From Parazoarcus communis (GTDB taxonomy: Bacteria; Pseudomonadota; Gammaproteobacteria; Burkholderiales; Rhodocyclaceae), in NCBI RefSeq assembly GCF_003111645.1, contig NZ_CP022187.1, positions 1,550,001 through 1,614,000 of the forward strand: a stretch of 64,000 nt of DNA, written 5' to 3'. How positions within the stretch are numbered: position 1 is the first letter of the stretch; the number at the start of each line of letters is the position of its first letter. This document shows, piece after piece, positions 33,647-42,619 of the stretch. The notes beneath the pieces are model-generated. The model saw only the letters and a list, made by a program, of their open reading frames with translations, was not told where the DNA came from and ran no database searches. A program made the translations under genes and the position numbers.

Positions 33647-34225
33647 TTATTCGATCAAAAGAGACTCGATCCAGCGCTCGCCCGGGGCAACATCATCGCG
33701 CGTGGCCGGGTCGTACGGCGCCACGTCGGCGGCATCAGGCGGCGCACTGATGTAGTTGAGGTCGATCGCTTGCGGGCTGCCCACCCACCCGCGCTCATCC
33801 GGTTCAAGTCTGAAGTACAGGCCGTTTCTCATGCTGGCACCGAACTCGCCCGGACGCTTGAAGAGAAACAGCAGATCGTGCTCGAGCCAGCTCATGTCCT
33901 TTGCGCTCACCGTGCGCGGGTTCGAGTAGGGATAGGGCACATGGCAGACGATCTCGACCTTGCCGTCGAGACACTTGAACTCCTTCATCGACAGAAAGTA
34001 GTCCGCGAAGCGCGCGTGATCCATGCTGATCTCAAACGAACTGACACCCCCACCCCGCGGCGAAAAACGAACCGTCCCAAGCGGGATGCGTTGCTTGTCG
34101 CGTGTGTTTGCAAAGATGGTCTTCGTCCCGTCCAGCTCTGCTGCGGATACAACGGCAGGCCAGCCTGCAAGGAAAGCGGCGAACAGACAGACCTGAAACC
34201 TCACCCGCAGACGTATTGGATTCAT
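33647..34225 (-). CDS. hypothetical exported protein
   Basis: This 192-aa precursor is not a family I recognise. It has a signal peptide (basic MNPIRLRVRFQ, then a hydrophobic core ending WPAVVSAAE, cleavage about residue 28). The mature protein is mainly beta-like with aromatic residues, two cysteines (FKCLDGKVEIVCHV) that could form a disulfide, and a SWLEHDLLFLFKRP segment. It is divergent from the Sel1-like gene across the repeat-bearing region, and both products are exported. Confidence 0.7.
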   Translation of the reverse strand: MNPIRLRVRFQVCLFAAFLAGWPAVVSAAELDGTKTIFANTRDKQRIPLGTVRFSPRGGGVSSFEISMDHARFADYFLSMKEFKCLDGKVEIVCHVPYPYSNPRTVSAKDMSWLEHDLLFLFKRPGEFGASMRNGLYFRLEPDERGWVGSPQAIDLNYISAPPDAADVAPYDPATRDDVAPGERWIESLLIE

Positions 34226-34390
34226 CAGGGCGCTCCCGTGAGTCTGGGCCCAGGAACATCGGGCCTCGACACCAGTCTGAACCCATTGATTTATCGACTC
34301 AAGCCTCGAGCATGCAGGCTACCGACCGGTCCGCAGCCAGCGTGCGATGCAGCACCGGCTGAGCGCTCCCGTGCTAGCGCCTGGTGCGGT

Positions 34391-34481
34391 CGCCCGGTGT
34401 TATCGCCCGGTGTTATCGCCCGGTGTTATCGCCCGGTGTTATCGCCCGGTGTTATCGCCCGGTGTTATCGCCCGGTGTTAT
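34391..34481. repeat. minisatellite: seven perfect 13-bp tandem repeats
   Basis: The unit CGCCCGGTGTTAT is repeated seven times without a mismatch (91 bp). A degenerate partial copy precedes it and CGTTCTTC follows. It ends 38 bp before the start codon of the Sel1-like gene. Thirteen bp is not a multiple of three, and identical tandem copies are prone to slipped-strand change of copy number, so it could vary promoter spacing between cells. Confidence 0.95.
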
Positions 34482-34519
34482 CGTTCTTCACCGTGTCACC
34501 CTACCTAAGGGCACTGACA

Positions 34520-35335
34520 ATGAAACGCACCTGGCTTCTGTTTTTCCCGCTCGTGTCCGCGTCATCCCTGCTGATTGCGCAGGACAGCAGCCGCAGCGAC
34601 TGGATCAGGAATCCGGCGATGGGCAACTACAAGGCCTACGCCGAGTTCAAGATGGCCAACTACGATGGTGCTCGCCATGTGTGGGAGGTGCTGGCGGGCG
34701 TTGGTAATACCGACGCCTTGTTCAACCTCGCTGTGCTGGCGGAAGACGGTCTCGGTGAGCCGCGAGACCTCGCCAAGGCCGAGGCGCTGTACATCGCGGC
34801 AGCAGACGCCGGCAACTTCAAGGCCCAGTATCGCCTGGGCATGCTCTACAGCAGCGGCGGAATACTTGGTAAGGACCTTGAGAAGGCACGCTACTACCTG
34901 AGCCGTGCGGCAGCGGCGGGAGATCGCGATGCCACCGCACGGCTGCAGTCGCTGTCCATGCCCGAACGCACACCCGGCGATTTCGAGCGGGCCGAAATCC
35001 TCTCGAGCAGCGGCAGACACGCCGAGGCCGCGAGCCTTTACCGGCAGCTCGCCACACAGGGCGACGCCAGATCGCAGACGCGTCTTGCGTGGATGTACGA
35101 GGCCGGGCTTGGCGTCGAACGCAGCCTGGACGAAGCCGCTCGACGTTTCGCCATCGCAGCCGAGGCGGGCGAAGCCGAGGCGCAGTACGCGCTGGCCGTC
35201 ATGTTCCGCACCGGCAAGGGGCAGCCCGTCGATATCGCGCGCAGCCGGCACTGGCTCGAACGCGCAGCGGACCAGCACTATCCGCCGGCGCTTGCGGCAC
35301 TCGCAGCCGCAAGCGAGGCGGAGGGCGGTGAGTAG
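34520..35335 (+). CDS. exported Sel1-like (TPR) repeat protein
   Basis: This 271-aa precursor has a signal peptide (MKRTWLLFFPLVSASSLLIAQ) and then Sel1-like repeats across the rest of the protein. Examples are ALFNLAVLAEDGLGEPRDLAKAEALYIAAADAGN, AQYRLGMLYSSGGILGKDLEKARYYLSRAAAAGD and AQYALAVMFRTGKGQPVDIARSRHWLERAADQ. Such solenoids mediate protein contacts in the periplasm. AAGGG precedes the ATG. Upstream reading continues open through the tandem repeat, but the signal peptide fixes this start. Expression may depend on repeat number. Confidence 0.85.
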   Translation: MKRTWLLFFPLVSASSLLIAQDSSRSDWIRNPAMGNYKAYAEFKMANYDGARHVWEVLAGVGNTDALFNLAVLAEDGLGEPRDLAKAEALYIAAADAGNFKAQYRLGMLYSSGGILGKDLEKARYYLSRAAAAGDRDATARLQSLSMPERTPGDFERAEILSSSGRHAEAASLYRQLATQGDARSQTRLAWMYEAGLGVERSLDEAARRFAIAAEAGEAEAQYALAVMFRTGKGQPVDIARSRHWLERAADQHYPPALAALAAASEAEGGE

Positions 35336-37875: not shown

Positions 37876-40695
37876 TCAACGTTCGATGAGCGTCAGCCCC
37901 GCCGGCAGCGATTCGCCAAAGGCACGGCGGCGGTCCGCCTCGTCCAGCGCCACCAGCTCGCGTACCTGCTGGATCCAGCTCTCCGGCGCATTGATCTGCA
38001 CCAGACGACGCCCCACCTCCTCGCGCACCGTGAGCGACAGATCGCGCGCTCGATCACAGGTGAAGCGCGCCAGCTGCGCCGCAGCAAAGGCCGCGGGTTC
38101 AACCTTCTTCCAGTCCAGCGCAAGCACCGCACCCAGCCATTCGGCAGCGACCTCGGCCGGTACCGCCGTGTGCGGGCTGGCATAGAGCGGCGCGCGCGCG
38201 CCCACCCGACCGAGCGCCCACCATCCCTGTGCTTTCTCTGCCGGCTGCGCCAGACGTTCGAGCAGCCAGCGCCCCACCTCCACCTTGTGCTCGAGCGGTA
38301 CCCGCTCGAGCGACGCCGCCAGTCGCACCATGTCGTCGTAGGCGGCGAAGGCCGGGTTCTGATTCTGATTGCGCCTGGAGGCGGACACCAGCGCCTCGAG
38401 CTGGTTGGCCAGCACCTCAAGCAGGACGAGCTGGGCCGGCTCAGCGAGTCCGGCTGCGGCGCGCCGCCACAGCGTCCACCACTCCGACCAGTTCTGGCGC
38501 TCATTCACATACTGCAGGCCTTGTTCAAACAGCGGCCACAACTGCTCGATGCGCCAGTCGTCGAGCGGTGCGCCATACCCCGGACGCAGGCAGAATCCCG
38601 CCAGATTGAGCCACACCCGCTCATGCTGGGCGGAACGCCGGCGGCGCTTGGCACGTGCCCAGAGGGCATCGAACAGGGCGCGCGCAAGCGCCATGTCCCA
38701 GGTCTCGCGCTTGCCCAGCAGCATTTCGAGCTCGCCGCGCAACTGCCGCACCGGCGTGACCGCACCGGCACTCGAAGCCCCGCCCGAACCGCCACCTGAG
38801 GGTGCACTGCCAAACACCCGGTCGATGCACGCCACCGCCTCGGCAAAACGCGGCGGCAACCCGGCCTGCGGATCCGCAGCCGTGTCAGCCTCGGTATCGG
38901 CGCCACGCAGCTGGAATTCGAGCAGCCAGCGCCGATCAGGCTCGTCCGTGCTGACACAGTGCATCTGCAGGGAGCCGACCTCCGTAATCGTACTGATGAG
39001 TTCGACCGTCACGTCTCCGCGCCCGCTGCCCTCGCCCGACTTGCCCACGACGGTTGCGATCGGCGGCAGACGGACGAAATCCTCGCCCGAGAGCGACACC
39101 ACGTCGCCCGGCTGATGCGCCAGACCGGCACTGGAAGCAACCAGATGGAAGCGCACCGGCTGCCCGAGGCGCAACGCAAAACGGTGTTCGCTGAGGTGAA
39201 TCTCCCGATCTTCCTCCGTGCCGCGCGGCAGGACGCAAATGCCGCGCGCGCCACCCGCGTCCGCGCCCTGCCTGTCGTCCAGCACCAGAAAGTAGCTTCG
39301 CGCCGAGCCGCCGCCAATCGCCGGCGCCAGACCGTCGCGTACCAGCGAATAGGCCACCGCTCCGCGTGCCACGGCCACCTCGGCATCGTTGGCCAGCACC
39401 TGTGGCGATGTCCCGCGCCACTGCGCGAGCATCTCCACAATCCGCGACGCAAGCCTTGGCGAGCGGAACACGCCGCCGTTGAGCAATACCGTATCCGGTA
39501 CCGGCAGTGCCTCTGCGGCCGGCGCGGACTCGCCGAGTGCGGCGCGTGAAGCGCTGGCGTGACGACCGAGGAATGCCGCAAGGTGGCGCGTGATCGCTGC
39601 ATCAGCTGGATAGGGCAAGCCGAACTCGACGATGCCGGCGCGGCGACGGCGGGGTTGCTCGTCTGCGCCCACCAAGGGGAAGAAACCGTCGGCAACGAGA
39701 CGCTCGACCTCGTCGCGGGTGAGTTCGGCAGAGCGCGCGCCACCGATCAGCCTGGCGCCGGCGCCCAGCAGGGTCACCGTCACCTGCGCCGGCGCACCGT
39801 CGGCGAGCAGCTGTTCCTTGGCGTTGCGGCATTGCTGCACGAGCTGTGAAAAGCGTGCTGCCGTCAGCCTTTGTCCTGCTGCGCTCAGCCACGGCTCGAG
39901 CAGATGCGCCAGGGCCAGATCCATGTTGTCGCCACCCAGCATCAGGTGATCGCCGACCCCGATACGGGTGAGCTGCGGCATGTCTGCGCCCGACTCAACC
40001 TGAATCAGGGTGAGGTCGGTCGTGCCACCGCCAACATCGCACACCAGCAGCAGCCGGGTGTGCTGCAACTCGGCGGCAAGGCTGGCGCGCTTGCGAAACA
40101 GCCAGTCGTAACATGCGGCCTGCGGCTCTTCGAGCAGGCGCAGCGTGTGCAACCCTGCCAGCCGCGCGGCCTCGACGGTCAGCGCACGCGCACCCTCGTC
40201 GAAGGATGCCGGCACCGTGAGCACGATCTCCTGTGCTTCGAGCGGAGCCTGCGGGAAATGCTGCAGCCACGCCGCACGCACATGCGCAAGATAGCTCGCA
40301 CTCGCCGCCAGCGGCGACACCTTGGCTACATCATCGCCCGCGCCCCACGGCAGGATGGGCGCGAGCCGATCGACTGCGCCATGCGACAGCCAGCTCTTGG
40401 CGCTGGACACCACTCGCCCCGGCACCTGCGCCCCGAGATCGCGCGCGAGGGCGCCGACCACCGCCTGCTCGACACCGGCGAGATCGGGCGCTGCCCATGG
40501 CAAGGCAGTGTCTCCCGCCGCCAGCCCCCCCTTTGCGGGGTGATAGCGCAAGGAGGGCAACATCGGCCGCCCGGCCACCGCGCCCGGCGCGACGAGCTGG
40601 GTGATGGACAGCAGCTGAATCTCGTCACTGCCCGGCGCCGCGTAGGCGACGACCGTATTGCTGGTGCCGAGGTCGATACCGACGCGGTAACGCAT
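37876..40695 (-). CDS. large Hsp70-like protein with unusual C-terminal domain
   Basis: The 939-aa product begins with an Hsp70 ATPase domain: phosphate-1 GIDLGTSNTVVAYA, phosphate-2 LLVCDVGGGTTDLTL, adenosine-loop-like VLLNGGVFRSPRL, and a connect region LLEEPQAACYDWL. The canonical substrate-binding domain and C-terminal tail of DnaK are not seen. Instead there is a beta-rich middle and a helical C-terminal region (about 690-935), rich in Trp and Arg. Part of this may be the DUF3731-type domain; that name is from memory. The ATG at 40695 directly precedes the ATPase domain. A GTG at 40734, just after the upstream stop, is an alternative. It is third in the DUF2760 operon. Confidence 0.82.
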   Translation of the reverse strand: MRYRVGIDLGTSNTVVAYAAPGSDEIQLLSITQLVAPGAVAGRPMLPSLRYHPAKGGLAAGDTALPWAAPDLAGVEQAVVGALARDLGAQVPGRVVSSAKSWLSHGAVDRLAPILPWGAGDDVAKVSPLAASASYLAHVRAAWLQHFPQAPLEAQEIVLTVPASFDEGARALTVEAARLAGLHTLRLLEEPQAACYDWLFRKRASLAAELQHTRLLLVCDVGGGTTDLTLIQVESGADMPQLTRIGVGDHLMLGGDNMDLALAHLLEPWLSAAGQRLTAARFSQLVQQCRNAKEQLLADGAPAQVTVTLLGAGARLIGGARSAELTRDEVERLVADGFFPLVGADEQPRRRRAGIVEFGLPYPADAAITRHLAAFLGRHASASRAALGESAPAAEALPVPDTVLLNGGVFRSPRLASRIVEMLAQWRGTSPQVLANDAEVAVARGAVAYSLVRDGLAPAIGGGSARSYFLVLDDRQGADAGGARGICVLPRGTEEDREIHLSEHRFALRLGQPVRFHLVASSAGLAHQPGDVVSLSGEDFVRLPPIATVVGKSGEGSGRGDVTVELISTITEVGSLQMHCVSTDEPDRRWLLEFQLRGADTEADTAADPQAGLPPRFAEAVACIDRVFGSAPSGGGSGGASSAGAVTPVRQLRGELEMLLGKRETWDMALARALFDALWARAKRRRRSAQHERVWLNLAGFCLRPGYGAPLDDWRIEQLWPLFEQGLQYVNERQNWSEWWTLWRRAAAGLAEPAQLVLLEVLANQLEALVSASRRNQNQNPAFAAYDDMVRLAASLERVPLEHKVEVGRWLLERLAQPAEKAQGWWALGRVGARAPLYASPHTAVPAEVAAEWLGAVLALDWKKVEPAAFAAAQLARFTCDRARDLSLTVREEVGRRLVQINAPESWIQQVRELVALDEADRRRAFGESLPAGLTLIER

Positions 40696-40735
40696 CGACC
40701 GCCCGGCACCGACATCGCTGGAACGCTTGCTCACT

Positions 40736-42619
40736 TCAGGCGGACGCCTCCGCACGCACCTCGAACTCGACCTTCCAGCGCTGATCGCCATCGACCGGCA
40801 CGGCCTCCAGCTCCAGCGTACCGGCCTCGGTGACCCGTGCATGCAGCCTCACCCGCACGATTTCGCCTGCAGCACGACCTTCGGCAGGCAGGGTGGCCTC
40901 GATCTCGTCGAGCTCCTGCAATTCATCGACCGACCACATGTCGAGCAGCGTGCCAACCTGATCCGTGCGTCTCACCGACGAACCGAAGAAACGGAACCGC
41001 ACCGGTTCGCCCACCACCAGGCCGAATTCCTGCGCCGGCAGCGCAGCCTCGGTGCCCTCCTCCATGCCGAATGGCGCCAGGCACAGGGCTTCGATCGGCG
41101 GCTCCATGCCGGGTACGGCAGGCATGCTCGACTCGACCGCCACGTAGTAGGCCCGTGCCGTACCGCCGCGAATCCGCACACCGCTGCCACGGCGCACGTA
41201 TCCGTAGTAGGCCGCACCGCGCGCCACCGCGAGATCGAGATCGGCGCCGCCGAGCAGCCGTGCCGGCGGCGCACCTTCGGCCGTCAGCCAGGATTCGAGC
41301 GTGGCCAGCAGACGGTCGGCAAGCAGGCCGGACTTCAGCACACCGCCGTTGAACAGCACCGCGGTGGGATGCAGAAAGCTCGCGTCATGTGGCTGCGCCC
41401 TGTCGAAGCCCTCGAGCGCGGCCGTGGCCTCACGCTGACGGGTCAGGAAAGCGGCCAGATGACGGGTGATGGCGGCATCCTGCGCATAGGGCAGGCCCAG
41501 TTGCGTGAGCGCTGCACGCGCACGGACCTGAGGATGCTCGGACACTGACACCTGGGGGAAGAAGCCATTGAGCAGCACGGCATCGAGTTCGCTGCGGGTC
41601 AGCTCGGTGCGGACCGAACCGCCAATCAGCTTGGCGCCGCGGCTGGGCACCACAAGCGCAACCGCGTCAACATCGGGTTCGGCCAGCAGCTTTTCCTTGG
41701 CCCCGCGGCAGGCGTGCGCGAGCGCCCGGGTCTGCCATGCGTCGAGCCGCGTTCCCTGCTCGGCCAGCTTGCGCACCACGCCATAGGCGAGGGCCAGATC
41801 CATGTTGTCGCCGCCCAGCAGGATATGGTCGCCCACTGCCACCCGGTGCGGCTCCAGGTTACCGTCACGCTCGACCACTGCGATCAGCGACAGGTCAGTC
41901 GTGCCCCCGCCGATATCGACCACAAGGATGATGTCACCCAGCTTCACATCCTTGCGCCAGCCGCCCCCGCTGTTCTGAATCCAGCTGTAAAGCGCCGCCT
42001 GCGGCTCTTCGAGCAGGGTCAGACGGGTGTAGCCGGCAGCGGCAGCGGCCTCGGCAGTCAGCTCGCGCGCCACCGGATCGAAGGATGCCGGAATGGTGAC
42101 GGTGACGTCCTGCTCGGCAAACGGCGCCTCGGGGTGCGCCGCATTCCAGGCCTCGCGCAGGTGCTCCAGGTAGCGTACCGACGCATCGAAGGGCGAAATG
42201 CGCGCAACCTCTTCGGGCGCATCGGCGGGCAGAATGGGCCCGCGCCGGTCCACGCCGGGATGGCACAGCCAGCTCTTCGCGCTCGCCACCATGCGGATCG
42301 GCGTACCCGCGCCACGCGCACGCGCAAAGGCGCCCACGGCGAAATCCTGATCCGCGGTCCATGGCAGGGCAAGATCGCCCGGCGCGAGTTCGCTGGCATG
42401 CGGCAGATAGACGAAGGACGGCAACAGCGGCATGGCCTCGACTGCGCCCGGCCCCGTCAGCTGCGGAACGGAGAAAACCTCCAGCGCGGCCGCCTCGCCG
42501 TCACTGATCGCGGTGTCGACGTAAGACAGCGCGCAGTGAGTGGTGCCAAGGTCGATGCCGATCGTATAGCGTGGCGCGGTTTCCCCGGCGCCACTCACCA
42601 CTTCAGTGTTGTCGCTCAT
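40736..42619 (-). CDS. Hsp70-like protein (DUF2760-associated)
   Basis: This 627-aa protein of the Hsp70 superfamily has the ATPase motifs GIDLGTTHCALSYVD, VVDIGGGTTDLSLI, VLFNGGVLKSGLLADRLL and LLEEPQAALYSWI. A beta-type C-terminal region follows (EFGLVVGEPVRFRFFGSS...VRLHARVTEAGTLELEAVPVDG). It lacks the DnaK C-terminal lid and EEVD-like tail. It is clearly related to its neighbour at 37876, which suggests a gene duplication with added C-terminal sequence. Its start overlaps the DUF2760 gene by 4 bp. Client and partner proteins are unknown. Confidence 0.87.
   Translation of the reverse strand: MSDNTEVVSGAGETAPRYTIGIDLGTTHCALSYVDTAISDGEAAALEVFSVPQLTGPGAVEAMPLLPSFVYLPHASELAPGDLALPWTADQDFAVGAFARARGAGTPIRMVASAKSWLCHPGVDRRGPILPADAPEEVARISPFDASVRYLEHLREAWNAAHPEAPFAEQDVTVTIPASFDPVARELTAEAAAAAGYTRLTLLEEPQAALYSWIQNSGGGWRKDVKLGDIILVVDIGGGTTDLSLIAVVERDGNLEPHRVAVGDHILLGGDNMDLALAYGVVRKLAEQGTRLDAWQTRALAHACRGAKEKLLAEPDVDAVALVVPSRGAKLIGGSVRTELTRSELDAVLLNGFFPQVSVSEHPQVRARAALTQLGLPYAQDAAITRHLAAFLTRQREATAALEGFDRAQPHDASFLHPTAVLFNGGVLKSGLLADRLLATLESWLTAEGAPPARLLGGADLDLAVARGAAYYGYVRRGSGVRIRGGTARAYYVAVESSMPAVPGMEPPIEALCLAPFGMEEGTEAALPAQEFGLVVGEPVRFRFFGSSVRRTDQVGTLLDMWSVDELQELDEIEATLPAEGRAAGEIVRVRLHARVTEAGTLELEAVPVDGDQRWKVEFEVRAEASA

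What the first reader, a model, noticed from the sequence alone, without database searches (positions are those of the whole stretch)
34391..34519. Seven perfect 13-bp repeats in the promoter region of a Sel1-like exported protein
The array of identical CGCCCGGTGTTAT units ends 38 bp from the start codon and lies between two divergent genes for exported proteins. Perfect identity implies recent or ongoing expansion. A change of one unit shifts helical phase by more than a full turn, so expression could vary with copy number, a possible phase-variation switch. Alternatively each unit may be a binding site.
Basis: partly seen in the sequence, partly recalled or inferred. Interest (0 to 1): 0.6.

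Follow-up and report, generated by a model that had tools for sequence, protein, structure and literature searches.

The report
Seven-copy 13-bp repeat before Sel1 gene
A short stretch of DNA repeated seven times just before a gene for an exported protein is real and locally unusual, but it looks like an ordinary copying-slip repeat of one bacterial lineage, and whether it tunes the gene is untested.

Summary
Seven identical CGCCCGGTGTTAT units lie at 34391-34481, 38 bp before the ATG (34520) of a 271-aa Sel1-repeat protein and 165 bp from the start of a divergent exported protein. Two decayed units precede them in register (34378-34390, 9 of 13; 34365-34377, 7 of 13), so the array grew from an older, weaker repeat. 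The unit is found nowhere else intact in the genome. Two-copy stretches were not found in representative genomes, viral contigs or 394 other family genomes, apart from one two-copy hit with 3 mismatches. In 864 kb of the own genome (19%) it is the only perfect array of four or more copies. No comparable array precedes the Sel1 gene in 59 related loci (about 55 distinct). The sister species G002 has no Sel1 gene at this place. Neither an RNA-structure role nor a strong promoter inside the array is supported. Best reading: a lineage-specific minisatellite made by slippage, probably length-variable between strains, with at most a modest effect on Sel1 transcription. Phase variation is possible (analogues: hmw1A/hmw2A, nadA, sabA), but nothing here shows copy-number variation or an effect on expression.

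The parts
34391..34481 (+). Seven perfect tandem copies of CGCCCGGTGTTAT (a further CG follows at 34482-34483)
34378..34390 (+). Decayed unit in register, CGCCTGGTGCGGT, 9 of 13 identical
   Evidence: about 0.1% of other 13-mers of the window match the unit at 9 or more positions
34365..34377 (+). More decayed unit in register, GCTCCCGTGCTAG, 7 of 13 identical
   Evidence: 2.8% of other 13-mers match at 7 or more positions, so it is weak on its own
34507..34511 (+). Shine-Dalgarno-like AAGGG, 8 bases before the ATG
   Evidence: read; position checked
34520..35335 (+). Gene for an exported Sel1-repeat protein, 271 aa
   Evidence: Pfam PF08238 Sel1, E 2.3e-27; the homologue in L046 aligns from residue 1
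33647..34225 (-). Divergent gene for a 192-aa protein with a signal-peptide-like N-terminus; no Pfam or NCBIfam family
34197..34309 (.). Start and upstream flank of the divergent gene, alignable to the sister species G002 (71% identity); the array lies outside it

Best explanation
The array is a minisatellite (a candidate VNTR) that arose and was homogenised by replication slippage in the 5' flank of the Sel1 gene in this lineage. An older, imperfect 13-bp repeat (its decayed units remain on the 5' side) was expanded and homogenised to seven identical copies. Shown: the array, the decayed units, its uniqueness, and its absence in relatives. Inferred: that copy number differs between strains, and that any effect on Sel1 is modest. 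Because the units are identical, adding or losing one leaves the sequence next to the start codon unchanged; it alters only the number of units and the distance to DNA upstream of 34365. So the expected effect is graded tuning or none, not an on/off switch.
For: Perfect 7-unit core flanked 5' by in-register units of 9/13 and 7/13. The unit has no other exact copy in the 4.57-Mb genome. The exact two-unit stretch is absent from genome contigs and viral contigs. With up to 3 mismatches, 2 of 395 family genomes match: the own genome and one imperfect two-copy site. No array of 3 or more copies at 90% or better lies upstream of the Sel1 homologue in 51 loci (one 6-bp, 5.5-copy, 85% tract in L065) or in 8 further loci, at least 4 of which repeat members of the 51. 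It is the only perfect array of 4 or more copies in 864 kb of the own genome. Its RNA fold is not special: 335 of 1000 arrays of permuted units fold as well or better.
Against: Such arrays are rare in this genome, and this one sits 38 bp from a start codon, so pure chance placement is not certain. Perfect identity could also reflect selection on a bound sequence. No second strain was available, so variability is not shown. Only 19% of the genome was surveyed. The closest orthologues are only about 70% identical, so their upstream DNA is a weak comparison.
Confidence: 0.65

Rival explanations
1. A promoter-proximal contingency locus: slippage changes the number of 13-bp units, and this changes Sel1 transcription stepwise, as in hmw1A/hmw2A, nadA or sabA.
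For: Position 38 bp from the ATG and perfect units; exported product; each pair of units gives a weak promoter-like TTATCG-N18-TGTTAT; published precedents.
Against: The best promoter score is matched or beaten by 62 of 400 random 200-bp stretches of the window, and the consensus scan found none. No copy-number variation or expression data. No similar arrays upstream of orthologues. Bacterial contingency loci mostly use units of 1-9 bp (recalled).
Confidence: 0.2
2. An array of binding sites: each unit binds a regulator or nucleoid protein, and cooperative binding controls the divergent pair.
For: Identical, evenly spaced units between divergent genes.
Against: The genome has only one site outside the array within one mismatch, while the reversed control pattern has 5. 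A 13-bp spacing puts neighbouring sites about a quarter turn apart. The alignable upstream flank of the divergent gene ends at 34309, before the array.
Confidence: 0.08
3. The array acts in the mRNA leader as a structured element whose length tunes translation.
For: The strand folds better than dinucleotide shuffles (z -3.97, 1 of 200).
Against: 335 of 1000 permuted-unit arrays fold at least as well, and predicted accessibility of the AAGGG and ATG region stays between 0.15 and 0.31 for 0 to 11 copies with no trend. The only Rfam match is a microRNA family far below its threshold.
Confidence: 0.04
4. Translation starts upstream and the array is coding, so each unit shifts the frame of Sel1 on and off.
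For: The Sel1 frame is open upstream through the array to 33593; 13 is not a multiple of 3.
Against: The signal peptide starts at ATG 34520, which has a well-placed AAGGG, and the L046 homologue aligns from residue 1. The upstream frame is antisense to the divergent gene in G+C-rich DNA.
Confidence: 0.02

Closest known systems
[quoted passage not shown]
   Same: Short perfect units upstream of a gene for a surface or exported protein; more repeats generally went with less mRNA (PMC2424069, passages read).
   Different: There, repeat number ranges from 9 to 28 among isolates and expression was measured; here the unit is 13 bp, one genome is known, and nothing was measured.
TAAA repeats in the nadA promoter of Neisseria meningitidis
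   Same: A repeat tract upstream of the start alters the spacing between distal and proximal elements (PMC2791445, passages read).
   Different: nadA has mapped NadR operators and an IHF site around the tract; none is known here.
T-tract of the sabA promoter of Helicobacter pylori (rheostat)
   Same: A promoter-proximal repeat whose length shifts the axial alignment of upstream elements and core promoter (PMC4081817, passages read).
   Different: A mononucleotide tract next to a known -35 element; here no core promoter is mapped.
Bacterial minisatellites used as VNTR typing loci
   Same: Perfect short-unit array outside genes (class recalled).
   Different: Polymorphism among strains, the property that makes a VNTR, could not be tested.

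Membership tests
Minisatellite (tandem array of a unit of about 10 bp or more) | Head-to-tail copies of one unit | tested here: met
VNTR | Copy number differs between strains | not testable with these tools
   One genome per species is held; no second strain
Promoter-type phase-variation locus | Array within or next to a mapped promoter | tested here: inconclusive
   No consensus promoter; only weak sites inside the array; no transcription start data
Promoter-type phase-variation locus | Expression changes with copy number | not testable with these tools
   Needs reporter fusions
Dispersed repeat or shared operator | The unit recurs at other places in the genome | tested here: not met
   Only one other site within one mismatch
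Sel1-repeat proteins | Sel1 repeats above the Pfam cutoff | tested here: met
   94.9 bits against a cutoff of 30.7

The most novel reading that the evidence does not exclude
A 13-bp promoter minisatellite works as a slippage-driven rheostat for an exported Sel1 protein in a free-living betaproteobacterium; by its unit length and its host it would extend promoter-type phase variation beyond host-adapted pathogens.
Probability: 0.15. Interest if true: 0.45.

Novelty: new member of a known kind. Interest (0 to 1): 0.2.

Why it matters
If copy number varies and changes expression, it would be a simple contingency locus in an environmental betaproteobacterium, where few such loci are described (recalled). 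If not, it is a handy strain-typing marker and an example of a short minisatellite that looks regulatory only because of where it lies.

Tried and rejected
RNA leader structure: rejected, since arrays of permuted units fold as well in 335 of 1000 cases and start accessibility does not depend on copy number. DNA hairpins: neither strand of the array folds better than shuffles. Coding array or N-terminal extension: rejected because of the signal peptide, the AAGGG and the L046 homologue. Rfam: only mir-9198, 27.8 bits against a cutoff of 92. Mobile element or plasmid origin: no plasmid match to 34150-34620 and no viral contig with two units. Shared dispersed unit: rejected. The G340 match (CGCCCGGTGTTCTCGCCCGGTATTCT) is two imperfect copies only. 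Sel1 relic in G002: the stretch before ybaK reads AADQDDLPAVAAMAAEGSD-stop, like the Sel1 C-terminus, but its score of 42 is reached by several of 211 other windows of the same locus (listed top scores 41, 42, 42, 42, 43, 47, 47, 53), so a relic is only suggested by its position. Literature: full-text searches for 13-bp tandem repeats, for Azoarcus with phase variation, and for Sel1-like repeat with Azoarcus found nothing on this array (listings). PMC2907700 was opened for passages only and is not relevant.

Full report
Observation. Seven identical 13-bp units, CGCCCGGTGTTAT, occupy 34391-34481 of the window and are followed by CG. Tandem Repeats Finder gives 34390-34483, 7.2 copies, 100% matches, the best-scoring array of the window. 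With up to two mismatches the window contains these seven matches and no others. The array ends 38 bp before ATG 34520, which is preceded by AAGGG at 34507-34511. Two further units in register lie 5' of the array: 34378-34390 (9 of 13) and 34365-34377 (7 of 13). Among other 13-mers of the window 0.10% reach 9 matches and 2.8% reach 7. No such unit is visible on the 3' side (4 of 13 at 34482-34494). A perfect core with decayed edge units is what slippage with repeated homogenisation leaves (inference).

Genes. The downstream gene encodes a 271-aa protein with Sel1 repeats (PF08238, E 2.3e-27). NCBIfam gives only matches far below their cutoffs. The N-terminus looks like a signal peptide (by eye). 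The divergent gene (33647-34225) encodes a 192-aa protein with a signal-peptide-like start and no Pfam or NCBIfam match. Further genes around: pirin, LysR, an aminoacyl-tRNA editing domain protein, a beta-eliminating lyase.

Where the genome belongs. The genome is one contig of 4,572,081 bases; the window is 1550001-1614000. Two other members of its genus (G003, G004) have contigs of the same lengths as JAUSOD010000091.1 (Azoarcus sp. MAG) and NZ_QKOE01000006.1 (Parazoarcus communis SWub3), so I take it to be in the Parazoarcus group of the Betaproteobacteria (inference).

Distribution of the unit. In the own genome the unit occurs exactly only in the array; one more site has one mismatch, against 5 hits for the control pattern read backwards. 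The exact two-unit stretch has 0 matches in genome contigs and 0 in viral contigs. With up to 3 mismatches, 2 of 395 family genomes match: the own genome and G340, where two imperfect copies stand alone. The two collections of contigs may leave out records very near the window's own genome.

Comparison of the locus. Among 5 genomes of the genus, 3 have a Sel1 protein at E <= 1e-30: the own one and two at 48-49% identity. In the sister species G002 the order divergent gene - ybaK is kept and the Sel1 gene is absent; alignable DNA upstream of the divergent gene ends at window position 34309, before the array. A stretch before ybaK in G002 resembles the Sel1 C-terminus, but not beyond chance by score. 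In 5 of 54 homologous loci (L049, L050, L052, L059, L063) a relative of the divergent gene lies just upstream of Sel1 in the same direction, so the two genes are linked in several lineages; 3-kb flanks limit this count. Upstream of Sel1 homologues, 51 loci (L046-L096) showed one tract of 3 or more copies (L065, 6 bp, 5.5 copies, 85%), and 8 further loci showed none; at least four of the 8 repeat members of the 51, so about 55 are distinct. Some matches begin inside the gene, so the upstream boundary is approximate.

How unusual in the genome. In 864 kb of the own genome (the window plus 40 stretches, 18.9%), 41 rows score 50 or more; the array ranks fourth and is the only perfect one with at least 4 copies. 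The others with at least 3 perfect copies are 9 bp x 3.7 and 8 bp x 3.6. In 419 kb of G002 the best array has score 85.

Mechanism tests. No sigma-70 consensus site was found in 34180-34560. With an approximate, recalled sigma-70 matrix the best sites are the repeated TTATCG-N18-TGTTAT inside the array, score 7.7, reached by 62 of 400 random stretches. RNA 34380-34540 folds better than shuffles (z -3.97), but this is a property of tandem repetition: 335 of 1000 arrays of permuted units are at least as stable, and predicted openness of the AAGGG and start codon does not trend with 0 to 11 copies. DNA strands of the array fold no better than shuffles.

Reading. The evidence supports a slippage-made minisatellite of one lineage. 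Since all units are identical, copy-number change cannot alter the sequence next to the start codon; it can alter only the number of units and the distance to upstream DNA. This argues for a graded effect or none rather than an on/off switch. Precedents for graded effects are hmw1A/hmw2A, nadA and sabA. Strain variation and expression could not be tested here; they decide between a neutral repeat and a rheostat.

Noticed in passing
L110:17815-17920 (own genome, stretch 1150001-1170000): Two tandem copies of AGAACCAAAGGGGTC followed by an inverted copy (GACTCTGACCCCTTTGATCC), next to the end of a gene; looks like a dispersed palindromic element.
   Followed up: no
L130:13551-14027 (own genome, stretch 1265001-1285000): A 225-bp unit in two imperfect copies holding TTGTCCACAG and GGGGATAAACA, reminiscent of DnaA-box-like sites (recalled).
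   Followed up: no
L117:8553-11356 (own genome, stretch 2990001-3010000): A 324-bp unit in 8.7 copies at 93% matches, probably a large repeat protein gene.
   Followed up: no
L097:13458-18150 (G002): Two neighbouring genes for large Hsp70-like proteins; a homologue lies at window 37876-40842 and another directly upstream of Sel1 in L053.
   Followed up: partly
L127:10519-10552 (own genome, stretch 575001-595000): Another perfect 13-bp repeat (ACCACACGCAGTG), 2.6 copies, of unrelated sequence.
   Followed up: no
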